Part shown: in pieces, positions 35,780-61,376 of the stretch
How the letters are laid out: each line of letters opens with the position of its first letter
Numbering within the stretch: the stretch's first letter is position 1
Assembly (NCBI RefSeq): GCF_964355755.1
Contig: NC_092676.1
Coordinates: 8,230,288 to 8,294,287 of the forward strand
DNA: 64,000 bases
Reading direction: 5' to 3'
Source of the DNA: Antedon mediterranea
Lineage: Eukaryota; Echinodermata; Crinoidea; Comatulida; Antedonidae
Notes under the pieces: generated by a model
The model's database searches: none
What the model was told of the DNA's origin: nothing
The model's input: only the letters and a program-made list of their open reading frames with translations
Program-made: the position numbers and the translations under genes

Positions 35780-36711
35780 ACATTGTTTTAAATGGAATCT
35801 GTACAACTGCCGGTTGACGCATCTTGCACTTAAACATATAGACAATTGTGTAAGATAAGAATTGGCTGATGAGTTTATAGGGATGATGAATGTCCAAACA
35901 TATATTTCATCAGGAATCGTCATCCAACCCATCGTAGAACTAATTGCCATTACTATTATCGAGCTCAGTGAAAACGATCAACCCTAGTTTTTTTGCCATT
36001 TTTAATTGTTCTATTCTTCTCTGTGTTCTGTTGACAGAACGGACAAGAAGATTACAAGGTACCTCACTGTAATTGCAATGAACCCAATGTCGTTAAGTAC
36101 AATAAATATGGCGAATGCATACTCTCAGCCTTGCCAATGACTTTTGCCAGAGGTAGTGCAAGGTACACTCTCTTTGCCATAGTTATTATTCCTAAAATAT
36201 GAAATATTGATAAAGTTTTAGTTCATTTGCTGCTAATGGTGGACAACTCAGCACAATCCATCATAGTAGCCATGCAAAGCCGATAATGATTCTACATTTT
36301 GCACAATTGAAGCGTTTGGTACTAAATGGATTAATAATGTTAATAGCTCGATCAACATTCAGAAAAAATGAACACTGAGCACTGTCCAGAGAGAGTAGAA
36401 ATAGTCCCTGCAAAACTGCAAAGGAAACTGCTTTTCCAATCTCTTGCCATTTTTGCGTACTGTCCATGATAATGTATAACTGCATTCTGCAAGATTAGTA
36501 ATGATTGTGGTTTGGACCTTATTGACATTGTTACCTTTTTAAACTTTTGTGATATGATGACAATCAAATTGCCAATGACATGCCAATGATCATCATTAAT
36601 ACACGGAGAACTTTGCTTTTTAGCAAGTCTTCACATGATGCAAAGGCATCAACGGGTTCGCAGTTCGCAATGACACCAACAACGCAACAGAGACAAGAGA
36701 AATCGGAGTAC
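35780..36711 (-). pseudogene. RXFP/GRL101-like 7TM exon, copy 1 (degenerate)
   Basis: After an acceptor at 36712 (CTCATAG|G, phase 2) it reads YSDFSCLCCVVGVIANCEPV, then CEDLLKSKVLRVLMMIIGM at the start of TM1. A frameshift precedes GNLIVIISQKFKK. Next comes RSKPQSLLILQ, where most of TM2 is deleted, then YHGQYAKMARDWKSSFLC and STLSGQCSVFIF (TM3). A second frameshift leads to VDRAINIINPF, the DRY-like motif, and IIIGFAWLL (TM4), followed by a stop. TM5 appears as YAFAIFIVLNDIGFIAITV after another stop. TM6 starts MAKKLGLIVFTEL, and TM7 is WTFIIPINSSANSYL. This order and wording fit relaxin-receptor-type LGRs (RXFP, GRL101). At least four disabling lesions make it a pseudogene. Confidence 0.82.
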
Positions 36712-37152: not shown

Positions 37153-37227
37153 AATTCTTTTAAATGTGTCAGTTGTTCAAAAGTTTTATCTCTGTATTTC
37201 CATAAGTTGTTGTTCTCGTTTAACCAT
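37153..37227 (-). CDS. LRR exon linked to 7TM copy 1
   Basis: The 75-nt exon, phase 2 to phase 2, between CCTTTAG and a GTAAGT donor. It reads WLNENNNLWKYRDKTFEQLT, then HLKEL across the junction. It is paralogous to the exon at 42456-42527 (both have KTFEQLT), as expected from duplication of the locus. Given the state of the 7TM exon it is probably relict. Confidence 0.72.
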
Positions 37228-40399: not shown

Positions 40400-41727
40400 T
40401 CACATTGTATTAAGTGGAATCTGTTCAACTGCCAGTTGACGCACTTTGCACTTAAACATATCGACAATTGTGTAAAGATAAGTATTGTCTGAGAGGTTCA
40501 TAGAAATGATCGATGTCGCTGCCCAAACATATCATCAGGAATCCTCATCCAATCCATCTCAGAACCAATTACCATTACAATTATCCGGAACCAGCATCAT
40601 CATCATCTTCATCATCCACCCTGGTTTTCTTTTTATATTTATTTGATCTTGTCGTTTCATATTCCGTTGAGAGTTGTCCATCATTTCTTATTGGACACGA
40701 ATGCTTTGAGGTAACACACTGCAATTACAATAAACCCAATGCTGTTAAATACAATAGAAATTACAATAAAATCATCCTTTTCAGGGACTTCAGAGGCAGT
40801 GCAATCTTTATATTGCCTAGTCATAATAATTATCTCCAAAATATTATGTGTACAGATTCTCTTAATATTTTTTTTTTTAATTAATTAATTCATTTTTTTG
40901 AATATTGTGTTTACTTTTATGTACGGTATGTTTTGGACTTTTGAAAATATTAAATAGGTCAAGTGTTATAATGTTCTTAAAGCTATAGTTAATTATTTGC
41001 CGTAGATGCAAACAAATGTTTGTGGAACTAGGGTGGTAAATTAGGTCAATGGTCATCGATCCATACCAAAATATTGAGGAAAAACCTCCTACAAGCCACA
41101 TTTTAAACCAAATCTCCACCATCAACTAGAGGTTTGGATTTCTGTATACATTTCATTTTAAGATAGTATTCATACATTTTAACGTTAAAATTGGACACCA
41201 TATCGACTCAATTTATCAACTACTATGAGAAGTACAGTAGTTATTAAAGTAAGCTTCGGCTAATTTTAATCGTCATAACACAACTCCAAGTAACAAAACC
41301 CGTTAATTGTGTGTGTTAATAGGCATTTGTGTGTGTTATATAGGCCAAAATTTAAAAGTGGCATAAACATTTTGGTGGGGGGGGGGGGGATTTTTTTTCT
41401 AACATTGTATATGGTATACTCTATCAGAAAAACCAAAATAAAATTTTCCTATACTTTCTTTCCGCAAATGTGTATATTAACTGTTCTGAACCCAGGCTAC
41501 TAGGTTAATTATGTCTTGCCCATTTTCACTCCACCATGGGTGAGCCACTTGATGGGGATTCTTTGCTTTTTACTAAAACCGTTGTGTGGATTTTGTTTTT
41601 CCTGGACAAAATAAATAAAATGAAAAGAATAAAAATCTATACTTCTCTTGTTTGTTCATCTTTACATGATGGTTGACAGTAATCAATAACGCCTACGAGG
41701 CAACACAGTCTTGAACAATCTGAAGAC
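40400..41727 (-). pseudogene. RXFP/GRL101-like 7TM exon, copy 2 (degenerate, rearranged)
   Basis: It starts at an acceptor at 41728 in the same phase as copy 1, with SSDCSRLCCLVGVIDYCQPS matching copy 1's start. TM1 to TM4 are not recognisable: about 800 bp of unrelated AT-rich DNA lies there, including a run of more than ten G residues near 41380. Sequence similarity resumes with TM5 at about 40790-40700 (DDFIVISIVFNSIGFIVIAV, then CYLKAF), followed by stops. TM7-like WAATSIISMNLSDNTYLYTI lies at about 40535-40475. DNA similarity to copy 1 continues into the tail. Confidence 0.75.
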
Positions 41728-42455: not shown

Positions 42456-42527
42456 AAATGTGTTAAGTTGGTTAATTGTTCAAAAGTTTTATCTTCGTAA
42501 TAAAGTAAGCTGTTCCCATCTAAATCT
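42456..42527 (-). CDS. LRR exon linked to 7TM copy 2
   Basis: The 72-nt phase 2/2 exon between CATTATTTAG and a GTAAGT donor reads DLDGNSLLYYEDKTFEQLTN, then LTHL across the junction. It follows the leucine-rich pattern LxxNxL-x(5)-F-x-x-L-x-x-L. One LRR per exon with phase 2 borders is known from LGR-family receptor genes. Confidence 0.75.
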
Positions 42528-42964: not shown

Positions 42965-43039
42965 AAACGTGAAAGTGATGAAGCAAAAGAAGAAAATGCA
43001 CCTGGTTCTATGGTAGTTATACCGTTTTCCTGTAAAAAC
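42965..43039 (-). CDS. LRR exon, older diverged member
   Basis: The 75-nt phase 2/2 exon between TTCCAACAG and a GTAAGT donor reads FLQENGITTIEPGAFSSFAS, then SLSRL across the junction. It matches the LRR consensus LxxNxIxxIxPGAFxxFxxL. It is clearly different from the amplified family upstream and probably represents the ancestral next repeat. Confidence 0.72.
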
Positions 43040-43953: not shown

Positions 43954-44205
43954 AGGGATATCAGTGCTGTCAAACTATCAAATACATTGGCTGGTCAGGG
44001 AACATTTTCGCCAGTGTAGCATAGCAAAAAGGTATACAAAACAACCTTATTGCTACACATTTTGAAAATTGTGTAGCAAAAAATACTATACAAAACTATG
44101 TTTTCCGACTTAAAAATCAGTTTGATTAGCAATATTGCTAAACAAAATTTTTAAATGAAAATTTTCCCTGCTGGTAATGTACTTATTTGGTTATAGCCCA
44201 AATGC
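43954..44205 (-). pseudogene. LRR array exon A1, interrupted by a MITE
   Basis: Without the 175-bp insertion at 43996-44170 and one target copy, the exon is exactly 72 nt with phase 2 borders, like its paralogs. The upper part encodes HLGYNQISTLPA and the lower part NVFDSLTALISL. The insertion breaks the exon. Confidence 0.8.
43996..44170. mobile_element. 175-bp MITE inside an LRR exon, CTGGT target duplication
   Basis: It starts CAGGGAACATTTTCG and ends GAAAATTTTCCCTG, imperfect inverted repeats. CTGGT is found directly on both sides (43991-43995 and 44171-44175). Removing the element plus one CTGGT restores the length and frame of the paralogous exons, so the borders are exact. The internal sequence has repeated TTGCTA(C/A)ACA-like motifs and no coding potential. 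Confidence 0.85.
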
Positions 44206-45425
44206 CTTAAAAGTAAAAACAATGTACAGTAACAATTACATGCAAGCTGTATACAACTTTTATGTTTTACTTTCAGCCAATGAGACATTCTACATAGTAA
44301 ATGCTGATGAGTATACTTTAATTAGTATAAATAAACTATGTTAAAATAAGTAAAGTATTATTCTCATTTAAACACAATTTGTATAACAAATTCTAAATAT
44401 TTGTTATTTTAATATATCTCTTTAAATGAAGACCAATTTTCAATTATTTATATCTTAAAAAAGTGCATAATTTATTGATAATTGTTAAATATTTTACTAA
44501 AGGTTAGAGTCCAAATACCTTCAAAGTAAAAACAATATACCTTCAATTCAACAATGTACATTAAAAATTACAGTTTTCAAGCTGTTTAGAATCTCAACTT
44601 TTATTTTTCATACACATTTTGAATTATTTGTATAGTCTTTCAGTCAATGATAGGGACATTATCTACATAGTAAATGCTATTGAGTATACTTTAATTAAGG
44701 CTAAAATAAACTGTTAAAATAAGAAAGTGTTATTCTCATGAATGAACTCAATTTGTATGACAAATTATTTGTTATCTTAATGTATTTAATATAATAATTA
44801 AATCCCTTTAAATGAAGACCCAATATTATCAATAATATATTTGTATATTGTATGTATTGATCACATTATCTACATAGTAAATGCTATTGAGTATACTTTA
44901 ATTAAGCAAAAATAAACTATGTTAAGATAATTAGAATGTGTTATTGAACATAATTTGTATAACAAATAATAATGATAATTAATGCATATAACCTAATCAT
45001 AAACATTTATTTTTCATATACACTTTGATTTTTGTTATAGTCTTTCAGGGACACGATCTAAATAGTAAATGCTTATGAGCTTACATTAATTAGGCAAAAA
45101 TAAACTGTTAAAATATGAAAAATGTTATTCTCATAAACACAATTTCTTAATGTATTTAATAATTTAATAGTTAAATCTTTTTAAATGAATGTTAAAATAA
45201 TAAAGTGTTATTTTCATGAACACCATTTCTATAGCAAATTCTAAATATTTGTTTTCATTTAAACATATTTATTATTGATATTAATTAAATCTCTTTAATT
45301 AATGACCAATTAACGCTTATTACATTATAAAATTATAAAATGCATAATGTTTATTTTTATAAATGATATTTGTATTTATTTTGAAAAAAAAATTAAACAT
45401 AGAAATAAATAATTGCAAAATACTT

Positions 45426-45466
45426 AGGCCTACAGCTTTGTCAGTGTTGTCAAACTATCAAATACA
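45426..45466 (-). pseudogene. Degenerate LRR exon remnant
   Basis: The 3' half (VFDSLTTLTKL) is present but the donor GTAAGT has become GTAGGC, and the 5' half is missing. A copy occurs in the duplicated segment at 48428-48468. Confidence 0.65.
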
Positions 45467-45511
45467 TAAAATTAAAAAAATTAAAGAAATTGACATGTTC
45501 AAAATACTTAC

Positions 45512-45583
45512 AGGTATTTCAGTGCTGTCAATCTATCAAATACATTGGCTGGCAATGTACTTATTTGGTTACCATCCAAACTC
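45512..45583 (-). CDS. LRR array exon A2 (72 nt)
   Basis: Between CTTTTAAG and CT|GTAAGTATTTTG, phase 2/2. It reads SLDGNQISTLPANVFD, then RLTALKY plus Leu at the junction. Exposed strand residues are S, D-G and K-Y. Splice sites are intact. Confidence 0.82.
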
Positions 45584-46528
45584 CTTAAAAGTAAAAACAA
45601 TGTACAGTAACAATTACATGCAAGCTGTATATAACTTTTATGTTTTACTTTCAGCCAATGAGACATTATCTACATAGTAAATGCTGATGAGTATACTTTA
45701 ATTAGTATAAATAAACTATGTTAAAATAAGTAAAGTATTATTCTCATTAACACAATTTGTATAACAAATTCTAAATATTTGTTATTTTAATATATCTCTT
45801 TAAATCTCTTTAAATCTCTTTGAAGACCAATTTTCAATTATTTATATCTTAAAAAATTGAATAATTTATTGATAATTGTTAAATATTTTACTAAAGGTTA
45901 GAGTCCAAATACCTTCAATTCAACAATGTTCATTAAAAATTACACCATTCAAGCTGTTCAGAATCTCAACTTTTATTTTTCATACACCTTTTGAATTATT
46001 TGTATAGTTAAAAGTGAATTTTCATTTTTATGGACAAATAAAATTTCTTGAATCTTATTGGTGCTGGTTCAATATTTTATTAATTTATTTTCTTTATATT
46101 ATTTATAATTAATCAAACTATAATAATTTATATTAGATGACTACATTTATTTTTTAATTTAATTGTTATTTTTATATGTTGTAAATTCAACAATGCTAAC
46201 CTATTTGCAAGAAAGAAAGTTTAATGAGTAAAATGTAAACAACAATGTACAATAGAAAGTAGCTATTTGATGTCAAATTTACTTTTTTATAGTAAATTCT
46301 ATTTATTTGTTATATTATCATCATAATGTTTTTAATTATTATAATTATATAGGTATTATAACTCTGGACAATTCAGATATTAATAATGAATAATTTATTG
46401 ATAATGTTAAACATTTTACTACTGCCAAGTGGTTTTAAAATGTATACTGTATATATTGATTACATTATGAAATGATAACATTTTAAAAACAAATTAAACA
46501 AGGAAATTAATATGAGAAAGATACTTAC

Positions 46529-46562
46529 AGGGATATCAGTGCTGTCAAACTATCAAATACAT
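46529..46562 (-). pseudogene. Truncated LRR exon, 3' part only
   Basis: The donor and the last 34 nt (VFDSLTALISL) remain; the 5' half is replaced by TAGTTTAGTTA. The same breakpoint recurs at 46862, 58058 and 59221. Confidence 0.75.
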
Positions 46563-46828
46563 AGTTTAGTTAAGAGATAGGGACATTATATAAATAGTAA
46601 ATGCTGATGATACTTTAATTAGGCAAAAATAAACTAATTATTATAATTAAAGGTATTGTAACCCTGGACAATTCAGATATTAATAATGAATAATTTATTG
46701 ATAATGTTAAACATTTTACTACTGCCAAGTGGTTTTAAAATGTATACTGTATATATTGATTACATTATGAAATGATAACATTTTAAAAACAAATTAAACA
46801 AGGAAATTAATATGAGAAAGATACTTAC

Positions 46829-46862
46829 AGGGATATCAGTGCTGTCAAACTATCAAATACGT
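46829..46862 (-). pseudogene. Truncated LRR exon, same breakpoint
   Basis: This is a near-identical 300-bp tandem copy of the truncated exon at 46529. It retains only VFDSLTALISL and the donor. Confidence 0.75.
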
Positions 46863-47245
46863 AGTTTAGTTAAGGGATAGGGACATTATATAAATATTAA
46901 ATGCTGATGATACTTTAATTAGGCAAAAATAAACTGTTAAATTAAGAAAATGTTATTCTCATTAATACAATTGTTTTAGCAAATTCGAAAAATTTGTTAT
47001 CTTCTTTATTAATAAAATAATAATTATATATCTTTAAATAATGACCAATTAACAATTAAAATCTTTAAAAAATGAATAATTAATATTGATGGTTAATATT
47101 TTATTAAACCTAAGTTTAAAACAAGTATATACTGTATGTATTGATCACATTATGAAATTATACAATTAGGCAGTAATATGAATTATTTTATTATGTATTT
47201 TTACAAAAAATTAAACAAAGAAATTGATATGAGCAAAATACTTAC

Positions 47246-47317
47246 AGCCATGCCAGTGCTGTCAAACTATCAAATACATTGGCTGGTAATGTACTTATTT
47301 GGTTACCACCCAAACTC
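47246..47317 (-). CDS. LRR array exon A3 (72 nt)
   Basis: Same borders and phase as A2. It reads SLGGNQISTLPANVFD, then SLTALAW plus Leu. Exposed strand residues are S, G-G and A-W. Splice sites are intact. Confidence 0.82.
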
Positions 47318-48427
47318 CTTAAAAGTAAAAACAATGTACAGTAACAATTACAATATGCAAGCTGTATATAACTTTTATGTTTTACTTTCAGCCAATGAGA
47401 CATTATCTAAATAGTAAATGCTGATGAGTATACTTTAATTAGTATAAATAAACTATGTTAAAATTAGTAAAGTGTTATTCTCAATATCTTAAAAAATTGC
47501 ATAATTTATTGATAATTGTTAAATATTTTACTAAAGGTCCAAATACCTTCAATTCAACAATGTACATAAAAAATTACAGTATTCAAGCTGTTCAGAATCT
47601 CAACTTTTATTTTTCATACACATTTTGAATTATTTGTATAGTCTTTCAGTCAATGATAGGGACATTATCTACATAGTAAATGCTATTGAGTATACTTTAT
47701 TAAGGCTAAAATAAACTGTTAAATTAAGAAAATGTTATTCTCATGAATGAACACAATTTGTATGACAAATTATTTGTTATCTTAATGTATTAATATAATA
47801 ATTAAATCCCTTTAAATGAAGACCCATTATCAATAATATCTTTGTATATTGTATATATTGATCACATTATCTACATAGTAAATGCTATTGAGTATACTTT
47901 AATTAAGCAAAAATAAACTATATTAAAATAATTAGAATGTGTTATTGAACATAATATGTATAAAAAATAATAATGACAATTAATGCATATAACCTAATCA
48001 TAAACATTTATTTTTCATATACATTTTGATTTTTTTTATAGTCTTTCAGGGACACTATCTAAATAGTAAATGCTGATGAGCTTACATTAATTAGGCAAAA
48101 ATAAACTGTTAAAATATGAAAAATGTTATTCTCATAAACACAATTTCTTAATGTATTTAATAATTTAATAGTTAAATCTTTTTAAATGAATGTTAAAATA
48201 ATAAAGTGTTATTTTCATGAACACCATTTCTATAGCAAATTCTAAATATTTGTTTTCATTTAAATGTATTTATTATTGATATTAATTAAATCTCTTTAAT
48301 TAATGACCAATTAACGCTTATTACATTATAAAATTATAAAATGCATAATGTTTATTTTTATAAATGATATTTGTATTTATTTTGAAAAAAAAATTAAACA
48401 TAGAAATAAATAGTTGCAAAATACTTA

Positions 48428-48468
48428 GGCCTACAGCTTTGTCAGTGTTGTCAAACTATCAAATACGT
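48428..48468 (-). pseudogene. Degenerate LRR exon remnant, duplicate
   Basis: Same remnant as 45426-45466, in the 3-kb-offset duplicate segment. Confidence 0.65.
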
Positions 48469-48512
48469 AAAATTAAAAAAATTAAAGAAATTGACATGTT
48501 CAAAATACTTAC

Positions 48513-48584
48513 AGGTATGTCAGTGCTGTCAATCTATCAAATACATTGGCTGGCAATGTACTTATTTGGTTACCACCCAAATCC
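48513..48584 (-). CDS. LRR array exon A4 (72 nt)
   Basis: It reads DLGGNQISTLPANVFD, then RLTALTY plus Leu. It lies in a segment nearly identical to the one around A2 at an offset of about 3.0 kb, yet differs from A2 at the first, third, and penultimate codons. Splice sites are intact. Confidence 0.82.
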
Positions 48585-48726
48585 CTTAAAAGTAAAAACA
48601 ATGTACAGTAACAATTACAATATACAAGCTGTATACAACTTTGTTTTACTTTTAGCCAATGAGACATTATCTACATAGTAAATGCTGATGAGTATACTTT
48701 AATTAGTATAAATAAACTATGTTTAA

Positions 48727-49268
48727 GGGCCCATATATTTACCTACCGTATGTGTTAAACCAAGGGCTCATAAATTTACCTACAGTACTTGTGTTAAACC
48801 AAACTCTGGCAGACTGAGAGATTGGGATGTTTCATTCATCGCAAATCAATAGATTTGTATAATCGTATATTAAATCTATCAAAATAGTATTTTTTAAAGA
48901 AAATCGGCCTGTCTTCAACATTATGATGGTGTACTCTAGCTGTTCAACCGGTTTTCAGCTATTAAAAACAATTATCGTAGGAGGAGATAGGAAAATGCGA
49001 AGCCTCCTCGCATTTTTGTGGCGGGTATTTTTCAAGATGGACCATCCATTAGACAGTGTATACCAGGGTCGGAAAACACCCCTATTTGGGGCAAATCGTT
49101 GAACCTAAATTCGTTTTAATCGTCAATAACTAATTATCTAACTTAATTTAATTAGTAAATAGGGTTACATCAGGTGGTTAAAATCGGTACCGAAAGTACG
49201 AACCAACTTTATATACCATCGAGTAAAAATTATAGAAGTAAGGCGCGATTTACCGAATTTTGCCCTTA
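48727..49268. repeat. About 540-bp insertion in the LRR array
   Basis: The array sequence AAACTATGTT...AAAATAAG is broken here: the left side goes into AAGGGCCCATATATTTACC and the right side comes out of TACGTAAATTTATATATAG, then resumes with AAACTATGTTAAAATAAG. The left part has a 50-bp imperfect direct repeat (TTTACCTAC...GTGTTAAACCAA twice). The ends are only weakly inverted (AAGGGC/GCCCTT). Confidence 0.6.
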
Positions 49269-49857
49269 CGTAAATTTATATATAGATAAACTATGTTAAA
49301 ATAAGTAAAGTATTATTCTCATTAACACAATTTGTATAACAAATTCTAAATATTTGTTATTTTAATATATCTCTTTAAATCTCTTTGAAGACCAATTTTC
49401 AATTATTTATATCTTAAAAAATTGAATAATTTATTGATAATTGTTAAATATTTTACTAAAGGTTAGAGTCCAAATACCTTCAATTCAACAATGTACATTA
49501 AAAATTACACCATTCAAGCTGTTCAGAATCTCAACTTTTATTTTTCATACACCTTTTGAATTATTTGTATAGTTAAAAGTGAATTTTCATTTTTATGGAC
49601 AAATAAAATTTCTTGAATCTTGAATCTTGAATCTTATTGGTGCTGGTTCAATTTTCTTTATATTATTTATAATTAATCAAACTATAATAATTTATATTAG
49701 ATGACTACATTTTTTTAAAATTTAACTGTTATTTGTATATGTTGCAAGAAAGAAAGTTTAATGAGTAAAATGTAAACAACAATGTACAATAGAAAGTAGC
49801 TATTTGATGTCAAATTTACTTTTTTATAGCAAATTCTATTTATTTGTTATATTATCA

Positions 49858-49926
49858 GGCCTAAAAAAAAAAATTGTTTGTTTGCTGTTAAGTTTTTTTT
49901 TTTGGTAGGGGGGGCGGGTGGAAAAA

Positions 49927-49960
<34 letters not shown>

Positions 49961-51158
49961 GTTAATTTCTCTGTTATTTGCTCGCGAATTTGAGAGTAAC
50001 AAAACACACTGAATAAAACTACGAGCTCAAACATCTATTCATAATTTGTTTCACATTTTAATTCTGTTTTGGGCGCGTTAGGCCCCGTGTCTAAACTAGC
50101 CTAGGCTAGTCCTACTACTACACAGTAGGTCGTTGTTAGCAGGCCTCTAATTAAAAGAAGTTAGTTAGAAGTTAGTGTACCGTATATTTCGGTGTATAAG
50201 TCGCACCTGTGTATAATAAGACGCACCCGACCCCTAACTGAGAGTAAAATATCGGTATTTTGTATATCGTCGATGTATAAGACGGCCGCGCCCAGCCTCA
50301 ACAAGAAGGGAAGTCCCCCATTCCGTCAGTTCTTTCTAACTTGTTATGAATGAGTTTCGCACCCGCAACATCGAGTGCATGACCGCACGTGTGTGTGGGC
50401 TAGCCTCGCTCGATCCTTTTATCGAGAGGCGCACGTTTTCACGGACAATCGTATTCGATTAGTATCTATGTATCCTAGAAGTGTACTGTGTACGCTAGGT
50501 CTATGCTATAATCAACTGGAGAATATACTAGTCGAATACTGTGTACACAATGTGGTTGCCAAGAAGGGCTCGCTCGCGCTGGGGGTACGACGGTCGTGCG
50601 TATAACTATAATACTATTCCAATATCGTAAACGTCGTTTTCAAATGAAATTTTATCGGAGCGCCTAAAACAGCTCCATAATGAACAAATCTTTTCATCAT
50701 ATTTAGTACAAAATCACGCTAAAATGCCTTGAAAACTAGCAGGTTGCTGTTACGCTAGTACACTGTAGCTAGGCTAGGCCTACTCTTTAGACTTTATTAA
50801 TACTAATAGGCCTATCTAGGCCTTACCTTAAAAAGCCCAGGCCTAGCCAACGAGGTGGCGATATCTGTGTTGAGGCATTTATGTTCGGTGTATAAGACGC
50901 ACCCTTAATTTAGAGGTTAAATTTGCGTGTCAAAAGTGCGATTATACACCGAAATATACGCTACGTTATTATTTTTATTGTTTCATCCTCGCACACTCGA
51001 TTTTTACACCTTTTCGGCCCAAAAAAATCATTAAAAAAACTTTTTTTTTTAAAGCGCCCTCAACGTAAAAAAAAAACTTTTTCTTATTTCCGCCCCAAAT
51101 TTTTGGCGAAATTAGGGGCGGCGGATGACAGCAAACAAACTATTTTTTTTTTTTGGCC
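49858..51158. mobile_element. 1.3 kb inverted-repeat element with TCA duplication, host of a nested element
   Basis: The left terminus begins GGCCTAAAAAAAAAAATTG followed by TTTGTTTGCTGT. The right terminus is its near-perfect inverse (ACAGCAAACAAAC, then an A/T-run and GGCC). The flanks read ATTATCA and TCATCATAATG, while uninterrupted paralogous array copies read TTATATTATCATCATAATG near 46312-46330. The insertion therefore duplicated TCA. It has lost its coding part or never had one, and it carries the nested element 50178-50961. Confidence 0.72.
50178..50961. mobile_element. TIR element copy 2, nested in a larger element
   Basis: It has the same TACCGTATATTTCGGTGTAT terminus and the same core (CAACATCGAGTGCATGACCG) as the copy at 34361-35173. 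Its right end is slightly damaged (GATTATACACCGAAATATACG). It sits entirely inside the 49858-51158 element. Confidence 0.72.
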
Positions 51159-51321
51159 TCATCATAATGTTTTTAATATTATATTATAATTAAAGGTATA
51201 TTGTACCTCTGGATAATTCAGATATTAATAATGAATAATGTATTGATAATGTTAAACATTTTACTAATGCCAGGTGGTTTTAAAATGTATACTGTATATA
51301 TTGATTACATTATGAAATGAT

Positions 51322-51338
51322 GGTTACCCCACAAATAC
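51322..51338 (-). pseudogene. LRR exon remnant, 5' part only
   Basis: Acceptor plus the codons for YLWGN remain, then the exon is cut off and joins intron sequence. It carries yet another exposed-residue combination (Y, W-G). Confidence 0.6.
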
Positions 51339-52534
51339 CTTTAAAATGAAAACAATGTACAGTAGCAATTACATGCAAGCTGTATATAACTTTTATGTTT
51401 TACTTTCACAGCCAATGAGACATTATCTACATAGTAAATGCTGATGAGTATACTTTAATTCGTATAAATAAACTATGTTAAAATAAGTAAAGTATAATTC
51501 TCATTAACACAATTTGTATAACAAATTCTAAATATTTGTTATTTTAATATATCTCTTTAAATCTCTTTAAATGAAGACCAATTTTCAATTATTTATATCT
51601 TAAAAAATTGAATAATTTATTGATAATTGTTAAATATTTTACTAAAGATTAGAATCCAAATACCTTCAAAATAAAAATGTACATTAAAAATTACACCATT
51701 CAAGCTGTTTAGAATCTCAACTTTTATTTTTCATACACATTTTGAATTATTTGTATAGTCTTTCAGTCAATGATAGGAACATTATCTACATAGTAAATGC
51801 TATTTAGTATACTTTATTAAGGCTAAAATAAACTGTTAAATTAAGAAAATGTTATTCTCATGAATGAACACAATTTGTATGACAAATTATTTGTTATCTT
51901 AATGTATTTGATATAATAATTAAATTCCTTTAAATGAAGACCCAATATTATCAATAATATATTTGTATATAGTATGTATTGATCACATTATCTACATAGT
52001 AAATGCTATTGAGTATACTTTAATTAAGGCAAAAATAAACTGTTAAAATAATTAGAATGTGTTATTGAACATAATTTGTATAACAAATAATAATAATGCA
52101 TATAACCTAATCATAAACATTTATTTTTCATATACATTTTGATTTTTTTTATAGTCTTTCAGGGACACGATCTAAATAGTAAATGCTGATGAGCTTACAT
52201 TAATTAGGCAAAAATAAACTGTTAAAATATGAAAAATGTTATTCTCATAAACACAATTTCTTAATGTATTTAATAATTTAATAGTTAAATCTTTTTAAAT
52301 GAATGTTAAAATAATAAAGTGTTATTCTCATGAACACCATTTCTATAGCAAATTCTAAATATTTGTATTCATTTGAACGTATTTAATAATTATATTAATT
52401 AAATCTCTTTAATTAATGACCAATTAACACTTATTACATTATGAAATGATAAAATGCATAATGTTCAAAATTATATTTTTATTTATAAAAAAAAAAAAAT
52501 TAAACATAGAAATAAATAATTGCAAAATACTTAG

Positions 52535-52600
52535 GCCTACAGCTTTGTCAGTGTTGAAAAACTATCAAATACCATGGGCTGGCAATGCACTTTTTTTATG
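52535..52600 (-). pseudogene. Degenerate LRR exon
   Basis: Similar to 45426-45466 in its lost donor (GTAGGCC), but with most of the exon length kept up to CATTGCCAGCCCATGG. It has a frameshift-type difference in the VFD...LT stretch and a poor acceptor. Confidence 0.55.
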
Positions 52601-52703
52601 TTCATACAGGAATAACAGTGATATAGTAGTTGGGGTTAAGGTATAGAAAGTGTTAAAATGAGAAAGGGTCATAAGCAAATTGTAAATATTTGTTACATAT
52701 TAA

Positions 52704-55700
52704 GAGCCATTGTCTGTAAAAATCAAAGATTTGGTGGCAGATGTAAAAAAATGGATTTCTCTCAAATTTTTACCATGAATAGACATTTCAATAAAAAGCA
52801 TATCTACAACATTCATTTTAATTTTTAGCCTCCGTTGCCATGACAACGGTCAATTATCCAAATTTTGATGTTTTTGCCATTTTTCACAGATTTTCTATAG
52901 TGAAAAAGTACAAACTTGTATACTTATTTTAACCAAAAATACTTACAGTATACAGTTTTTGTTTATAGCAGTGTAAACAACATGTATTGAGTTCCATTTA
53001 ATGTAGAAAAAAAATAAATTACAAAATGGAGTTTGGTTGATACCATTATTTCAAAAAGGTGTGTTTTTGAAAAATATTTTTTTTATAAAAGTATACCTCA
53101 TAAACGTACCTATAACTTCCAAAGTGGTGTTTTTAAATCAATGAGGTTTTTTAATTTGATAGTCAATAGGTTTGTCAACAATAATCACAAAAAAAATACT
53201 GGGGTAAATTTTGTACATAGGTTTTGTGTTGCCAGGAAAATACAAAAAATACAAAAAATATAACAAAATATCAACAAACAAAACACATGAAACACAATTT
53301 AAATATGGCTAATCCAATAATAAAATGTATATGTGGCTTGTCATAATGCAACTAGAGTCATACGAATAGTTTAGATAAAATAGGAGAATGTGTTGCCAGG
53401 TTTATTTCAATTAATTGCCAGAAAAACAGTATTTTGCATTGAAATATTTAGTTGATGGAAAACAATGTTAAACTTGGAAATAATTGCGTCAATGGTTTTT
53501 ATAAATTTTTAAATCTATTTTGTGTAAAGAGATACAGAAAGACCTCCCAAAAATCTGACCTTGTAAATAGGTCATTTGAGGTCAAAAGGGGTCAGAATGC
53601 AAAACAGGACAGGTCCCCACTTTACTACAACTACAGTATTAATGTTTGATCAAAATTTACAAGATAGTTCATAACAATTTTCATAATTTACCTACAGTGT
53701 TACCTTAGCAACCATTTCTATGTGTAACTAAGGAAAGTAATTTTTTTTTAAACGTAAAAAATGGCGTTTTTATAAATACAAAGAATTGATTGCATTTGTA
53801 ATTTTTCTCAATTTTACTTCTACTGCATTCCATTAATGACAAACTTGACCTTGTAAATTCATTCATTTTGAGGTCAACATTTTACCATAGTAACTGTTTC
53901 TATGCGAAAATTTCAAAAAAATAAGGCGTTTTTCATAAATACAAAACATTTTTTCTACATAGTTTTACGTTTCTACTTTTTGCCAAATTTACTTTAAATA
54001 CTGAATCCTAATAATCTCAGAAAGAAAGTCTTGACGAATCTGAATAAAGGTTAAAAAAAATGACCTTTAGTGTTATCTTAAACCTGTTTATGTAACAAAT
54101 GATATTAAAAAAAAAAAAATTAAATATGGAGTTTCATGAAAAAAAAAAAATTACATATTGAGGTCAAATGACATCAACATTTTACCTATAGTGTATTGTA
54201 GCAACTGTTTCTATACGTAACTAAGTACAATATTTTTAATATGGGGTTTCATGACTACAAACAATTGATTACATAGCTTTACTACCTTTTCCCAAATTTA
54301 CTTATCTACTGTGAATCCCAGAAAATGTCTGACCTTGTGAAAGGGTCATTTGTTGGGTCAAGTTATGTCAAAATGTATTATTTATGTTATCTTAGAACCT
54401 GTTTCTATGCATAACTAAGGATAATTGTTTTTTTAAATACAATTGAACCTCCCGTAAGTGACCTGGAAAAGTGGCGGCTTACGGGCGGTGACCCCTTACG
54501 GGAGGTTCTGCCGGTAAAGGGCCAAAATCACTTATTATGGCTATATACGATATTCTTAACGAAACGAGCCTCTCAATTTTCCAGCTAATTGTAGGCCTAT
54601 TATTATTTATAATCAGGTGGTTTAGTATTTTTTAGCATTTTCAGACAAATTAAAAAAAATGTTATCATATGAAAAATGGTCGGTCGAAATCTGTGTAGTT
54701 TTCTCATCTCTTCATAGTAATGTTTTTAAAACCTCTTCAAAATAAAGCTAATATATAAAGAAATACAATAAACATGCACCTCTAATTCATAAGTCCATGC
54801 AATAAGTATCACTTTTTCGATTGGCCGCTTACAAAAAATCTCATTTTTAGTATAAAAAGGTGCCCGCAGCTGCTTACGGTAAGCACCAAATGCACTAATT
54901 AGATAGGAAGAACAAACAGGCTTTTCAAAGTGCGTCCATTAAGGGAGGTGGCCGCTGTAAATAAAATATGGGGTTTTCATGAATAAAAATAATCACAGAA
55001 GAAAGTGCTTACGAATATGACCTTGTGAAACGGTAATTTGAAAATGCAAATAAGGCATGCCTGCTAATAATCTACAAATTTAAATTTGTATGAGATAAAT
55101 ATGCAAAATCTAAAGAATATCTCATTTTTAGTTACCATAGTAACTGTTGCTATGCATAACTAAGGGAAATTTAATAATTATCAGATAATTATTAATTAAT
55201 AATTAATACTGAATCAAACCATCACAGTAAAAAAAATATAGAATTTAAAACCAATATTTAATAATAAAGTGTGATATTTTACATGCTGACCTTAAATGAA
55301 ATGAAATTTCAAACCAGGGCTTCAATATTTGTTATGTAGCATTAACATACCTGAGTATATCATTGACTTTTGATTGGCTCTATTTTGGGGAGGGGAAAGT
55401 GGTGGATCCAGGACTTTTAAATAGTTAGGGGGTTGAAGGCGAGGGTCTAAAAACTTAACTTTATGTCCTATCTTTTGCATTGCAATTTTTAACTTGGGTT
55501 GGGTGGGGGCTTGGAGAAAGGGGAGGGGGTGGGATGGAGGTGTTTGAATCCGTTTATTCATTGGGGCGATAGTAGCGGCAGTGTGGGTGGTGCTTGAATG
55601 CATGCATTTGACACTCTATAGTGGATGATCGACCAAAGTGTTGCAGTTTATCTTTCTGTGGTTATAGTCGGGATGGGGGGGGGGAGGGAGGGGTGGTAGT

Positions 55701-56592
55701 TGAAAGTGGTGGTGGATGGGCATGTGGGATCTGCTTAGGTTAGCAAATAAAAGAAGTAAACAAATGAAAGAGGAGCTTCAAAATAAGAGAGGAGTAATCT
55801 GTTGCAAAGACTAAAATTCACAACGATCTGATAATTTATTCAAATTTCCAGAGGATATAACCTATAAAATGACATTAAAACTGGAAATTACAGAATCTAT
55901 AATTAAAAATTAATTTTTTTTCTCACAACACAACTAGAACTATATAAAACATTAAGAATTTTTCTGACCAATGAGTTTCAAATCAAATAATCAAAGAAAA
56001 TAAAATGTTTTTACTAATATACCATGTTTTTTTTAATAAAAATGCCTATGTTTCTCGCAACACTGCTTGTAGATTTTAAATTTACCCCAGTATTTTATTT
56101 TAGAAATCAATTATTAAACATTAGAACTACCTATTTGTAATAAATCAGCTAATAAAATACACCACTTTGGGCGTTATGGTGAAGTAAAGTTTAGTTGCAT
56201 TGAACAATTAAAAAAAAGTGAAAAACACCCCTTTTTAAATAAATGGTATCTCCCAAAGTATGAAATAAAAAAAAATAAAAAAATTTGAAACAGGTACACA
56301 ATGCATTGTTATTATGCATACACTAATTATTTTTTATAATTAAATGAACATCACAAAAATATCGTTCATCAAAGTAGTACCAATATCCATTTTTAAAAAC
56401 CTTAAAAAAGGACAAAATTTGTCAAAAACACAAATTTTGCCGTTGCCATGGAAATATACGTGTGAAATAAAGAATACTTCATATTTGATTTCTCTCAACA
56501 CATATATAGCCATGTGCAAAATTTGAAAGAAATCCATTTTTTGAGTCTGCCACTCTTTTTGATATTTCTTTGATTCTTACAGACAATGGCTC
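52704..56592. mobile_element. TTAA-flanked 3.9 kb inverted-repeat element
   Basis: It begins GAGCCATTGTCTGTAA and ends TTACAGACAATGGCTC, flanked on both sides by TTAA. The inverted similarity runs on for about 100 bp (AATCAAAGA, then GGCAGA, then AAAATGGATTTCT). TTAA targets are used by piggyBac and Kolobok-type transposons. The interior has recurring GTTACCATAGTAACTG-like palindromic motifs and a GC-richer insertion at 54440-54960, but no long frame, so it is non-autonomous. The empty site is preserved in a paralogous array copy near 61040 (ACATATTAAGTATTGAATAATA). Confidence 0.78.
54440..54960. repeat. GC-richer inverted-repeat insertion inside the TTAA element
   Basis: The left end reads TTGAACCTCCCGTAAGTGACC and the right end CCATTAAGGGAGGTGGCCGC, an imperfect inverted pair around CCTCCCxTAA. 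About 520 bp. It differs in composition from the surrounding AT-rich DNA, suggesting a separate nested MITE. Confidence 0.5.
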
Positions 56593-56853
56593 TTAAGTAT
56601 TTAATAATAATAATTAAATTTCTTTAAATGAAGACCAATTTTCAATTATTTTTATCTTTCAAAATTGAATAATTTATTGATAATTGTTAAATATTTTACT
56701 AATGCTAAGTGATTTTTAAAATATATACTGTATACTGTATGTTGATTAGATTATGAAATGATACAATGCATAATATGCATTGTTATCAATTATTTTATTA
56801 TCAATTTAAAAAAAAAAATTAAACAAAAAAATTGATGTGATCAAAATACTTAC

Positions 56854-56925
56854 AGTGTTGTCAGTGCTGTCAAACTATCAAATACATTGGCTGGCAATGT
56901 ACTTATTTGGTTATAGTGCAAACGC
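56854..56925 (-). CDS. LRR array exon A5 (72 nt)
   Basis: It reads RLHYNQISTLPANVFD, then SLTALTT plus Leu. Exposed strand residues are R, H-Y and T-T. Splice sites are intact (acceptor CACTTTTAAG, donor GTAAGT). Confidence 0.82.
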
Positions 56926-58024
56926 CTTAAAAGTGAAAACAATGTACAGTAAAAATTACAATATGCAAGCTTTATACAACTTTGTTTTACTTTTAGCCAA
57001 TGAGACATTATCTACATAGTAAATGCTGATGAGTATACTTTAATTAGTATAAATAAACTATGTTAAAATAAGTAAAGTATTATTCTCATTAACACAATTT
57101 GTATAACAAATTCTAAATATTTGTTATTTTAATATATCTCTTTAAATCTCTTTAAATGAAGACCAATTTTCAATTATTTATATCTTAAAAAATTGCATAA
57201 TTTATTGATAATTGTTAAATATTTTACTAAAGGTTAGAGTCCAAATACCTTCAATTCAACAATGTACATTAAAAATTACAGTATTCAAGCTGTTCAGAAT
57301 CTCAACTTTTATTTTTCATACACATTTTGAATTATTTGTATAGTCTTTCAGTCAATGATAGGGACATTATCTACATAGTAAATGCTATTGAGTATACTTT
57401 AATTAAGCAAAAATAAACTATGTTAAAATAATTAGAATGTGTTATTGAACATAATTTGTATAACAAATAATAATGATAATGAATATAACCTAATCATAAA
57501 CATTTATTTTTCATATACATTTTGATTTTTTTTATAGTCTTTCAGGGACATTATCTAAATAGTAAATGCTGATGAGCTTACATTAATTAGGCAAAAATAA
57601 ACTGTTAAAATATGAAAAATGTTATTCTCATACACACAATTTCTTAATGTATTTAATAATTTAATAGTTAAATCTTTTTAAAGGAATGTTAAAATATTAA
57701 TAAAGTGTTATTCTCATGAACACCATTACTATAGCAAATTGTAAATATTTGTTACATATTAAAAAAAAGTATTTAATAATAATAATTAAATTTCTTTAAA
57801 TGAAGACCAATTTTCAATTATTTTTATCTTTCAAAATTGAATAATTTATTGATAATTGTTAAATATTTTACTAATGCTAAGTGATTTTTAAAATATATAC
57901 TGTATACTGTATGTTGATTACATTATGAAATGATACAATGCATATATTCATTGTTATCAATTATGTTATTATCAATTAAAAAAAAAAAATTAAACAAAGA
58001 AATTGATATGATCAAAATACTTAC

Positions 58025-58058
58025 AGGGATATCAGTGCTGTCAAACTATCAAATACAT
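58025..58058 (-). pseudogene. Truncated LRR exon, same breakpoint
   Basis: The same 3' half and the same junction TACATAGTTTAGTTA as at 46529 and 46829. It lies 390 bp from complete exon A6. Confidence 0.75.
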
Positions 58059-58446
58059 AGTTTAGTTACGAGATAGGGACATTATATAAATAGTAAATGC
58101 TGATGATACTTTAATTAGGCAAAAATAAACTGTTAAATTAAGAAAATGTTATTCTCATTAATACAATTGTTTTAGCAAATTCTAAAAATGTGTTATCTTC
58201 TTTAATATATTAATAAAATAATAATTATATATCTTTAAATAATGACCAATTAACAATTAAAATCTTTAAAAAATGAATAATTAATATTGATGGTTAATAT
58301 TTTATTAAACCTAAGTTTTAAAAAAGTATATACTGTATGTATTGATCACATTATGAAATTATACAATTAGGAAGTAATATGAATTATTTTATTATGTATT
58401 TTTACAACAAATTAAACAAAGAAATTGATAAGAGCAAAATACTTAC

Positions 58447-58518
58447 AGATGTGTCAGTGCTGTCAATCTATCAAATACATTGGCTGGCAATGTTCTTATT
58501 TGGTTATTGTACAAATAC
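58447..58518 (-). CDS. LRR array exon A6 (72 nt)
   Basis: It reads YLYNNQIRTLPANVFD, then RLTALTH plus Leu. Exposed strand residues are Y, Y-N and T-H. Splice sites are intact. Confidence 0.82.
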
Positions 58519-59187
58519 CTTAAAAGTGAAAACAATGTACAGTAAAAATTACAATATGCAAGCTGTATACAACTTTGTTTTACTTTTAGCCAATGAGACA
58601 TTATCTACATAGTAAATGCTGATGAGTATACTTTAATTAGTATAAATAAACTATGTTAAAATAAGTAAAGTATTATTCTCATTAACACAATTTGTATAAA
58701 AAATTCTAAATATTTGTTATTTTAATATATCTCTTTAAATCTCTTTAAATGAAGACCAATTTTCAATTATTTATATCTTAAAAAATTGCATAATTTATTG
58801 GTAATTGTTAAATATTTTACTAAAGATTAGAATCCAAATACCTTCAAAGTAAAAACAATGTACATTAAAAATTACACCATTCAAGCTGTTTAGAATCTCA
58901 ACTTTTATTTTCGATATAGATTTTTGAATTATTTGTATAGTCTTTGATAGGGACATTATCTACATAGTAAATGCTGATGAGCATACTTTAATTAAAGATA
59001 TATTTTCCCTCTGAAAAATATTCAGAGGGACAATTCAGATATTAATAATGAATAATTTATTTATAATGTTAAACACTTTACCAATGCCAGGTGGTTTTAA
59101 CATTTGTACTTTATATATTGATTAAATTATGAAATAACATTTTTAAAACAAATTAAACAAGGAAATTAATATGATAAAGATACATAC

Positions 59188-59221
59188 AGGGATATCAGTG
59201 CTGTCGAACTATCAAATACAT
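59188..59221 (-). pseudogene. Truncated LRR exon, same breakpoint
   Basis: The same truncated form with donor GTATGT, next to complete exon A7 at a spacing similar to that at 58025/58447. The truncated plus complete pair was therefore duplicated as a unit. Confidence 0.75.
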
Positions 59222-59609
59222 AGTTTAGTTAAGGGATAGGGACATTATATAAATAGTAAATGCTGATGATACTTTAATTAGGCAAAAATAAACTGTTAAA
59301 TTAAGAAAATGTTATTCTCATTAATACAATTGTTTTAGCAAATTCTAAAAATGTGTTATCTTCTTTAATATATTAATAAAATAATAATTATATATCTTTA
59401 AATAATGACCAATTAACAATTAAAATCTTTAAAAAATGAATAATTAATATTGATGGTTTATATTTCATTAAACCTAAGTTTTTAAAAAGTATATACTGTA
59501 TGTATTGATCACATTATGAAATTATACAATTAGGCAGTAATATGAATTATTTTATTATGTATTTTTACAAAAAATTAAACAAAGAAATTGATATGATCAA
59601 AATACTTAC

Positions 59610-59681
59610 AGCTTTGTCAGTGCTGTCAAACTATCAAATACATTGGCTGGCAATGTACTTATTTGGTTACCACCCAAACTC
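59610..59681 (-). CDS. LRR array exon A7 (72 nt)
   Basis: It reads SLGGNQISTLPANVFD, then SLTALTK plus Leu. The 5' half equals A3, while the 3' end differs (T-K in place of A-W). This is a mosaic look. Splice sites are intact. Confidence 0.82.
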
Positions 59682-60874
59682 CTTAAAAGTAAAAACAATG
59701 TACAGTAACAATTACATGCAAGCTGTATATAACTTTTATGTTTTACTTTTAGCCAATGAGACATTATCTACATAGTAAATGCTGATGAGTATACTTTAAT
59801 TAGTATAAATAAACTATGTTAAAATAAGTAAAGTATTATTCTCATTAACACAATTTGTATAACAAATTCTAAATATTTGTTATTTTAATATATCTCTTTA
59901 AATCTCTTTAAATGAAGACCAATTTTCAATTATTTATATCTTAAAAAATTGCATAATTTATTGATAATTGTTAAATATTTTACTAAAGGTGTTAGAGTCC
60001 AAATACCTTCAATTCAACAATGTTCATCAAAAATTACAGTATTCAAGCTGTTCAGAATCTCAACTTTTATTTTTCATACACATTTTGAATTATTTGTATA
60101 GTCTTTCAGTCAATGATAGGGACATTATCTACATAGTAAATGCTATTGAGTATACTTTATTAAGGCTAAAATAAACTGTTAAATTAAGAAAATGTTATTC
60201 TCATGGATGAACACAATTTGTATGACAAATTATTTGTTATCTTAATGTATTAATATAATAATTAAATCCAAATGAAGACCCAATATTATCAATAATATAT
60301 TTGTATATTGTATGTATTGGTCACATTATCTACATAGTAAATGCTATTGAGTATACTTTAATTAAGGCTAAAATAAACTATGTTAAAATAATTAGAATGT
60401 GTTATTGAACATAATTTGTATAACAAATAATAATGATAATGCATATAACCTAATCATAAACATTTATTTTTTATACACATTTTGATTTTTTTTATAGTCT
60501 TTCAGGGACACGATCTAACTAGTAAATGCTGATGAGCTTACATTAATTAGGCAAAAATAAACTGTTAAAATATGAAAAATGTTATTCTCATGAACACAAT
60601 TTCTTACTGTATTTAATAATTTAATATTTAAATCTTTTCAAATGAATGTTAAAATAATAAAGTGTTATTCTCATGAACACCATTTCTATAGCAAATTCTA
60701 ATATTTGTTTTCATATAATAATTATATTAATTAAATCTCTTTAATTAATGACCAATTAACACTTATTACATTATAAAATGATAAAATGCATAATGTTTAT
60801 TTTTATAAAAATATATTGTTATTTATTTTGAAAAAAATAATTAAACATAGAAATAAATAATTGCAAAATACTTT

Positions 60875-60945
60875 AGGCCTACAGCTAATGTCAGTGTTGT
60901 CAAACTATCAAATACCATGGGCTGGCAATGCACTTATTTGTTGAT
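60875..60945 (-). pseudogene. Degenerate LRR exon
   Basis: A sister of the copy at 52535: lost donor (GTAGGCC), CCATGG in place of CAATGTATT surroundings, and a changed 5' end (ACATCAACAAATAAG). Confidence 0.55.
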
Positions 60946-61304
60946 GTTCATAAAGGAATAACAGTGATATAGTGGTTGGGGTTAAGGTATAAAAAGTGTT
61001 AAAATAAGAAAGGGTCATGAGAAAATTGTAAATATTTGTTACATATTAAGTATTGAATAATAATACTTAAATTTCTTGAAATGGAGACCAATTTTCAATT
61101 ATTTTCATCTCTCAAAATTGAATAATTTATTGATAATTGTTAAATATTTTACTATATTATGCTAAAGTGATTTTTAAAATATAAACTGTATACTGTATGT
61201 TGATTACATTATGAAATGATACAATGATTAATATTCATTGTTTTAAATTATTTTATTTTCAACTTAAAACAAATTAAACAAAGAAATTATTATGAGCAAA
61301 ATAC

Positions 61305-61376
61305 AGTATTGTCAGTTTTGTCAATCTATCAAATACATTGGCTGGCAATGTTCTTATTTGGTTATTCCACAAAGAC
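61305..61376 (-). CDS. LRR array exon A8 (72 nt) with weakened donor
   Basis: It reads SLWNNQIRTLPANVFD, then RLTKLTI plus Leu. The donor is GTATTTTG where the paralogs have GTAAGTATTTTG, a 4-bp loss, so splicing may be weak. It is the most upstream complete array copy seen (the gene runs right to left). Confidence 0.7.

What the first reader, a model, noticed from the sequence alone, without database searches (positions are those of the whole stretch)
43954..61376. Amplified single-LRR exon cassettes whose differences sit on the ligand-facing strand
Eight complete copies of one 72-nt, phase-2 LRR exon (43954 interrupted, 45512, 47246, 48513, 56854, 58447, 59610, 61305) share nearly identical introns and the core NQI(S/R)TLPANVFD(S/R)LT. 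Most differences fall on x residues of LxxLxLxxN: start SLDG, SLGG, DLGG, RLHY, YLYN, SLGG, SLWN, HLGY; end KYL, AWL, TYL, TTL, THL, TKL, TIL, ISL. The exceptions are S/R pairs and one A to K change. Since all borders are phase 2, any copy could be spliced to any other. Core conserved and concave face varied resembles VLR cassette diversity, here in a GPCR-type LRR gene. I know of no description of this.
Basis: partly seen in the sequence, partly recalled or inferred. Interest (0 to 1): 0.88.

Follow-up and report, generated by a model that had tools for sequence, protein, structure and literature searches.

The report
Shuffled LRR exons of secreted receptors
In what is very probably a feather star genome, single repeat-encoding exons have been copied many times and differ mostly where the protein would touch its target, next to a complete gene predicted to release such a protein from the cell, which looks like an animal way of evolving new recognition proteins quickly.

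Summary
The minus strand carries seven intact 72-nt phase-2 LRR exons and an eighth split by a 175-bp insertion. In close pairs the adjoining introns differ by about 2%, the ligand-facing codons by about 35%. Codon models put x3, x5 and x7 under positive selection on all three trees, x8 on two, and all four with twelve exons. Dead copies do not vary at x2 and x3, intact ones do.

The GPCR reading needs correction. Both seven-helix relics in the window are broken. Just upstream lies a sister gene that reads through as signal peptide, LRRNT, five cassettes, cap exons and a stop before helix 1: a predicted secreted 275-residue protein. The window's array shares that stop, but no second copy of the 5' exons was found in 344 kb. 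Several cassettes look recombinant within the exon.

Brown-algal ROCO genes share the exon design and selected face, so this is a new variant of a known kind; ten paper searches listed no animal case of it. Expression, function and genome-wide copy number are untested.

The parts
61305..61376 (-). LRR cassette E61 (SLWN..TI); donor weakened (GTATTTTGC)
59610..59681 (-). LRR cassette E59 (SLGG..TK)
58447..58518 (-). LRR cassette E58 (YLYN..TH); donor side shared with the sister gene's SLGG..TH cassette
56854..56925 (-). LRR cassette E56 (RLHY..TT); 5' block codon-identical to a sister-gene cassette
48513..48584 (-). LRR cassette E48 (DLGG..TY)
47246..47317 (-). LRR cassette E47 (SLGG..AW)
45512..45583 (-). 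LRR cassette E45 (SLDG..KY); acceptor side as E59, donor side as E48
43954..44206 (-). eighth cassette (HLGY..IS), interrupted
43996..44170 (.). 175-bp inverted-repeat insertion in the eighth cassette, CTGGT on both sides
   Evidence: sequence
42965..43039 (-). 75-nt phase-2 LRR exon e43 (FLQENGITTIEPGAFSSFASSLSR)
42456..42527 (-). 72-nt phase-2 LRR exon e42 (DLDGNSLLYYEDKTFEQLTNLTH)
41637..41727 (-). Cys-rich C-terminal cap exon ending ...CLVGVIDYCQPSCKDEQTREV-stop, where helix 1 begins in GRL101-like proteins
40403..40755 (-). broken seven-helix relic A (helices 5-7 only, many stops)
37156..37227 (-). e42-like LRR exon belonging to relic B
35781..36710 (-). broken seven-helix relic B (frameshifts and stops)
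58032..58058 (-). dead half-exon of ISL type; others at 59195, 46836, 46536
45434..45467 (-). dead half-exon of TKL type; another at 48435
60889..60940 (-). degenerate cassette; another at 52541-52596

Best explanation
The window holds the cassette array of a young family of secreted LRR proteins derived from a GRL101-like LRR receptor that lost its seven helices. Each cassette exon gives one 24-residue repeat; because the intron cuts the beta strand at L4, an exon supplies x5, x7, x8 of one strand and x2, x3 of the next. Shown by computation: concave codons change many times faster than the adjoining introns; spliceable copies vary at x2 and x3 while dead copies do not; variable 5' and 3' blocks recur in new pairs, with some cassettes following one relative upstream and another downstream; a sister gene upstream reads through as signal peptide, LRRNT, five cassettes, two further LRR exons and a Cys-rich cap with a stop where helix 1 should begin; the window's array shares that stop, and its two following LRR exons differ from the sister's mostly at concave residues although both units have lost the helices. 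Inferred: the proteins are made and secreted; they bind varied non-self (or rival self) ligands; selection for new binding sites drives the changes, acting in the germline through unequal crossing-over or gene conversion plus point mutation. The window's array, for which no 5' exons were found, is used either through alternative splicing from the sister gene's 5' exons or as a stock of variants exchanged with it.
For: Codon models: M2a over M1a by 42.9-50.5 on three trees (seven exons); 0 of 100 null simulations on the star tree reach it; 92.1 with twelve exons on a star tree. Acceptor-side intron 1.8% against 34% in x5/x7/x8 for the 26 of 66 pairs with closest introns (4 of the 26 have identical blocks); donor side 1.6% against 37% in x2/x3 for 5 of 66 (1 of the 5 identical). 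x2/x3 differences: dead-type copies 0 of 60 and 0 of 18, intact copies 60 of 126. Third bases of x5, x8 and x2 codons are constant in twelve copies and 0 of 8 structural residues vary. Sister gene: CDS of 828 nt, one terminal stop. e43 and e42 between the two units: 12 of 30 concave nt differ, 0.64 expected at the intron rate, P 6e-12. Recombinant pattern, upstream:downstream informative sites within 250 nt: sister SLGG..TH 4:0 then 1:6, with the exon's 5' half 8:0 and 3' half 1:2; E58 5:1 then 0:44; sister NLGG..TW 5:0 then 2:93.
Against: No transcript, protein or ligand data. The array has no recognised signal-peptide or LRRNT exon, one cassette is interrupted, another has a weak donor, and 8 of 16 exon-like 3' ends are dead, all as in a decaying array. 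In the close pairs the core changes at 3.7%, not below the intron's 1.8%. Third bases of x3 and x7 do vary, and the first 24 donor-side intron bases vary in 8 columns among eleven copies. Three of 21 pairs are not significant in the flank test (P 0.28, 0.18, 0.072). Site models assume no recombination. x8 is not selected on one of three trees. The five triples tested for recombination were picked from nearest neighbours, and one of them (RLHY..IS) is mixed.
Confidence: 0.6

Rival explanations
1. The window's array is a non-functional partial duplicate of the sister gene. Its concave diversity arose while it or its parents were functional and is now only decaying.
For: No 5' exons recognised; one cassette interrupted and one donor weakened; broken helices; eight dead exon-like copies.
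Against: Seven cassettes, e43, e42 and the cap keep open frames, and all but one (61305) keep full donors; the e43/e42 differences from the sister unit are mostly concave although the introns between them are only about 2% apart.
Confidence: 0.25
2. One large gene with alternative cassettes: the sister gene's signal-peptide and LRRNT exons are spliced either to their own five cassettes or to the window's array, each with its own cap and stop, as brown-algal ROCO genes splice LRR exons alternatively.
For: Single copy of the LRRNT and signal exons, on the same strand upstream; all intact cassettes have phase-2 borders and the LRRNT exon also ends in phase 2; precedent.
Against: A complete terminal exon with stop lies between the two sets; no RNA evidence.
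Confidence: 0.2
3. A GPCR with a variable LRR ectodomain.
For: The exon order array, e43, e42, cap, helices matches GRL101-like proteins named from Antedon mediterranea.
Against: Helices broken in all three copies found in the cluster and a shared stop where helix 1 should begin.
Confidence: 0.05
4. Mutation targeted to the exon ends rather than selection.
For: Variable codons lie near both exon ends; third bases of x3 and x7 vary too; 8 of the first 24 donor-side intron columns vary among eleven copies.
Against: L6 between them never changes and third bases of x5, x8 and x2 never change in twelve copies; the last 30 acceptor-side intron bases vary in 2 columns (seven copies) and the first 12 donor-side bases in none (six copies, E61 left out); dead copies do not vary at x2 and x3.
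Confidence: 0.03

Closest known systems
Brown-algal ROCO genes (PMC11378527, passages read; Zambounis 2012 known here only from its citation there, not held)
   Same: One LRR per 72-bp phase-2 exon, exon shuffling, four positively selected sites on the concave face, alternative splicing proposed as a source of receptor diversity.
   Different: LRR-ROC-COR proteins of algae; here a predicted secreted animal protein with signal peptide and LRRNT, from a former GPCR, with apparent recombination within the exon.
Variable lymphocyte receptors of lamprey and hagfish
   Same: 24-residue LRRs with alike cores and varied concave residues, LRRNT, similar size; VLRs are among the protein and solved-structure hits.
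   Different: Cassettes here are exons with splice sites inside genes; no Thr-rich stalk; no evidence of somatic assembly; ancestry through GRL101-like receptors.
Mosquito APL1 genes (PMC9222773, passages)
   Same: LRR immune proteins of an animal whose diversity is attributed to gene conversion between paralogues.
   Different: Two-exon genes; no single-LRR exon cassettes described in the passages seen.
GRL101-like LRR GPCRs; Biomphalaria sudanica SudRes2 cluster (PMC12297450, passages)
   Same: Exon order and sequence of LRR, cap and helix relics (Antedon proteins); gene clusters with high variation linked to schistosome resistance in a snail.
   Different: Helices lost here; variation focused on single-LRR cassettes.
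Tetrahymena 90-bp-exon LRR genes (PMC6564038, passages)
   Same: Tandem phase-2 LRR exons spread by ectopic recombination.
   Different: 90-bp exons in a ciliate; 'positive selection' does not occur in its main text.

Membership tests
GRL101-like LRR GPCR | LRR ectodomain followed by the family's e43, e42 and Cys-rich cap exons | tested here: met
GRL101-like LRR GPCR | intact seven-helix domain | tested here: not met
   three relics found in the cluster, all with stops or frameshifts; stop where helix 1 should begin in both units
Brown-algal-type LRR exon cassette gene | 72-nt phase-2 exon per LRR | tested here: met
   (12 intact cassettes in two units; e43 is 75 nt)
Brown-algal-type LRR exon cassette gene | positive selection confined to concave sites | tested here: met
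   x8 on two of three trees with seven exons
Brown-algal-type LRR exon cassette gene | ROC-COR domain | tested here: not met
   Pfam finds only LRR families in the sister protein
Brown-algal-type LRR exon cassette gene | alternative splicing of LRR exons | not testable with these tools
   no RNA data
Variable lymphocyte receptor | LRRNT, variable LRRs, C-terminal Cys cap | tested here: inconclusive
   Architecture present in the sister gene by reading, but Pfam reports no LRRNT or LRRCT model
Variable lymphocyte receptor | incomplete germline gene completed by somatic copying of cassettes without splice sites (recalled) | tested here: not met
   cassettes carry splice sites and the sister gene reads complete in the assembly; somatic change itself not testable
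Variable lymphocyte receptor | Thr-rich stalk (recalled) | tested here: not met
   conceptual protein ends ...SCKDEQTREV

The most novel reading that the evidence does not exclude
An echinoderm has its own VLR-like anticipatory recognition system: a complete secreted LRR gene whose cassettes are renewed from, or replaced in RNA or DNA by, a neighbouring stock of cassettes without 5' exons, so that individuals (or cells) differ in the set of concave faces they display.
Probability: 0.12. Interest if true: 0.97.

Novelty: new variant of a known kind. Interest (0 to 1): 0.8.

Why it matters
In the papers found, diversification of LRR surfaces by exon cassettes is described in algae and ciliates, by somatic copying in jawless vertebrates, and by gene conversion between whole paralogues in mosquitoes. 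A cassette system in an early-branching echinoderm, in a secreted protein derived from a hormone-type receptor, would be an independent animal route to diverse recognition proteins, and one that is directly testable by long-read RNA and by comparing individuals.

Tried and rejected
Own-genome count of cassettes: not obtained. The tool answered once with a pattern whose letters I had guessed wrongly, so its zero says nothing. Only 8,170,288-8,514,287 of the contig was read (344 kb). There the full core (38 nt, up to 9 mismatches) occurs 14 times, all at 8,275,857-8,310,224 on the minus strand; the interrupted copy is not counted by that test. The 3' anchor occurs 28 times, one of them outside the cluster at 8,327,952.

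Protein search for other full-length carriers of this cassette: 931 proteins passed the cut-off, 120 were listed, none of these is named Antedon; this does not exclude them. Scallop P0091 has a run of like repeats, but its two youngest copies are identical at all concave sites.

A scan for signal-like first exons ending in phase 2 before the two arrays printed none; the sister gene's first exon ends in phase 1 and was found by eye, so an unrelated 5' exon for the window's array is not excluded.

My first recombination counts used 500-nt flanks; for E45 most upstream sites there come from a foreign stretch beside E48, so I repeated the test with 120 and 250 nt and cite those.

Targeted hypermutation, even spread of changes and chance were disfavoured. 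An intact GPCR in the window was rejected. No structure was predicted, because the spliced protein is not a contiguous read of the window or of a fetched locus; that the x residues face the concave side is established LRR geometry (recalled, and stated for ROCO).

Literature: ten searches. Their listings showed no animal gene with single-LRR exon cassettes selected on the concave face; two near cases were looked at in passages, amphioxus FrLRR (exon shuffling of a Slit2-N-like LRR region into another gene) and mosquito APL1. 'GRL101' with 'positive selection' gave 0 papers. Most papers of subscription journals are not held.
Full report
What is there. On the minus strand between 43.9 and 61.4 kb lie seven intact 72-nt exons and one interrupted copy, each a single leucine-rich repeat in phase 2. 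Three kinds of dead copy lie among them: four half-exons ending ISL, two ending TKL, and two degenerate longer ones. With the interrupted copy and the seven intact ones this makes 16 exon-like 3' ends.

Where it is. The query built from the helix relics gave 18 proteins, and the best 12 are named 'GRL101-like' from the feather star Antedon mediterranea, at 46-59% identity. The window's own assembly has 354,431,138 bases in 18 contigs; the window lies at 8,230,288-8,294,287 of a contig of 30,548,870 bases, while three of those Antedon proteins (P0065, P0072, P0073) are listed on a contig of 30,557,870. The source is therefore very probably A. mediterranea; this is inference.

Rate test. In one search (seven copies, E61 left out of the intron alignment, the interrupted copy included), acceptor-side introns differ by 6.1% on average (0.6-6.0% without E48), concave codons (x2, x3, x5, x7, x8) by 48% and the other codons by 2.5%. 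Nei-Gojobori over eight copies (28 pairs) gives pN 0.58 and pS 0.26 in concave codons, 0.036 and 0.034 in the rest. With 400-nt flanks (the donor flank was left out for 4 of 21 pairs whose alignment did not begin at the exon, and flanks of unrelated intron families inflate the 11.5% overall flank figure), concave codons exceed flanks in 21 of 21 pairs and other codons are below flanks in 19 of 21. In the cleanest trio (E47, E58, E59) flanks differ by 2.3-3.9% and concave codons by 3, 9 and 11 of 15 bases. Three of 21 pairs are individually not significant at 0.05 (P 0.28, 0.18, 0.072; the first two with E48).

Codon models (own script). M2a against M1a gives 2dlnL of 50.5, 44.7 and 42.9 on a star tree, an exon-based and a flank-based tree, with omega 31-39. 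x3, x5 and x7 have posterior near 1 on all three trees; x8 has 1.00, 0.04 and 0.99. The largest of 100 null simulations on the star tree was 8.0. With twelve cassettes, five of them from the sister gene, the star-tree value is 92.1 and the sites are x3, x5, x7 and x8 only. The models assume no recombination, which is doubtful here; the intron comparison does not depend on a branching order.

Selection, not mutation. Codons x5, x8 and x2 never change in the third base and L6 never changes in twelve copies, though third bases of x3 and x7 do vary. The last 30 acceptor-side intron bases vary in 2 columns (seven copies) and the first 12 donor-side bases in none (six copies, E61 left out); over the first 24 donor-side bases 8 columns vary among eleven copies. 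Copies that cannot be spliced are an internal control for x2 and x3: five ISL copies (one of them the interrupted exon) and three TKL-type copies show 0 of 60 and 0 of 18 differences at donor-side intron divergences of 9.6% and 5.0%, where seven intact copies show 60 of 126 at 13.6%. Pairs share history and are not independent, and dead copies of one type may be recent duplicates of one another.

The wider locus. Reading 344 kb of the contig (and the window) shows one sister unit just upstream: cassettes HLGS..KE, RLHY..IS, YLNY..SR, SLGG..TH and NLGG..TW at 8,309,595-8,302,825, then e43', e42' and the cap. Upstream of them are a signal-peptide exon at 8,311,160 and an LRRNT exon (ECPAYCTC...) at 8,310,610. 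Joined at predicted sites these ten exons give 828 nt, 275 residues, one terminal stop. The splice between exons 1 and 2 is my choice of the best-looking sites. Blast found one copy of the LRRNT and signal exons in the 344 kb, apart from short chance-like matches, so the window's array seems to have no 5' exons of this kind of its own.

Loss of the helices. In both units the cap reads CLVGVIDYCQPSCKDEQTREV and stops where GRL101-like proteins begin helix 1; the helices behind are broken in both, and a further broken copy lies at 35.8-36.7 kb. Between the units the two introns differ by 1.6 and 2.5%, the stretch before e43 by 4.6%, two stretches after the stop by 5.1 and 3.4%, and the helix relic by 2.2%; e43 differs by 14.7%, e42 by 8.3% and the cap by 4.4%. 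Of eight amino-acid changes in e43 and e42, seven are at x3, x5, x7 or x8 and one at x10; four codons changed silently across the two exons; the cap differs in its first two residues, which I take to continue the strand. In concave codons 12 of 30 bases differ where 0.64 are expected; in the other 117 exon bases 5 differ where 2.5 are expected. Change at the binding face therefore went on after the shared loss of the helices, or was brought in by exchange with other copies; a soluble ectodomain fits this better than a receptor.

Shuffling. 5' blocks and 3' blocks recur in new pairs with identical codons: RLHY with IS and TT, SLGG with TH, TK and AW, TH with SLGG and YLYN. Five triples, picked from nearest neighbours, were examined site by site (figures for 250-nt flanks unless stated). 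The sister SLGG..TH follows E59 upstream (4:0) and in its 5' half (8:0), then mostly E58 in its 3' half (2 of 3) and downstream (6 of 7). E58 follows E56 upstream (5:1), then the sister SLGG..TH in its 3' half (3:0) and downstream (44:0). NLGG..TW follows E45 upstream (5:0) and in its 5' half (6:1), then E58 downstream (93:2). E45 follows E59 in the nearest 120 upstream bases (2:0) and 5' half (2:0), then E48 in its 3' half (3:0) and downstream (46:0, one site neither); wider upstream counts for E45 are swollen by a foreign stretch beside E48. RLHY..IS is mixed. Upstream counts are small, so four of five triples suggest, and do not prove, exchange with the switch in the exon.

How it probably works. 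The intron lies in the codon of L4, so each exon carries parts of two strands. Joining exons, and recombination in the alike core, both make new concave faces without harming the fold. Selection then keeps residues that differ. What the proteins bind is unknown; defence or allorecognition is a usual setting for such a pattern (general knowledge), and a GRL101-like cluster is linked to schistosome resistance in a snail (passages). Against this, GRL101 in crown-of-thorns starfish has been discussed in chemosensation, growth and reproduction (passages), and an earlier survey found a single GRL101 ortholog in each ambulacrarian species studied (passages), so the automatic name 'GRL101-like' of the Antedon proteins may not mean orthology.

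Compared with what is known. Brown-algal ROCO genes share the exon length, phase, shuffling and selected face (passages). Mosquito APL1 genes are animal LRR immune genes diversified by gene conversion (passages). VLRs share the protein pattern but not, so far as tested, the genetics. The new elements are single-LRR cassettes in an animal, the predicted secreted product of a former GPCR, and apparent recombination within the exon.

Limits. No expression, no second individual, no genome-wide count, no structure model. The window's array could be a decaying stock.

Noticed in passing
window 46536-46562, 46836-46860, 58032-58058, 59195-59221, 45434-45467, 48435-48466: Two kinds of dead half-exon begin at the same exon base (before GTATTTGATAG) although what precedes them differs; two degenerate copies carry an extra base at the same point. 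A shared break site is unexplained.
   Followed up: partly
window 11692-17112 and 8233-11091, minus strand: Stop-free frames of 1806 and 952 residues, Ser/Thr-rich and repetitive; the two Pfam hits of the first (DUF374, DUF5389) look like composition matches and the second has none.
   Followed up: no
window 62725-63705, minus strand: Reverse transcriptase frame (PF00078) between the array and the sister gene.
   Followed up: no
window 23063-23851, minus strand: 262-residue frame that resembles, from recall only, the tyrosine recombinase of a DIRS-type element; no Pfam hit.
   Followed up: no
C7:8327952 in G000 (L005), minus strand: A single cassette-like 3' anchor 17 kb upstream of the sister gene, outside the cluster.
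   Followed up: no
P0091 (Pecten maximus, named relaxin receptor 2-like): Run of alike 24-residue LRRs in a scallop receptor, two of them identical even at concave sites: recent repeat gain without this diversification.
   Followed up: partly
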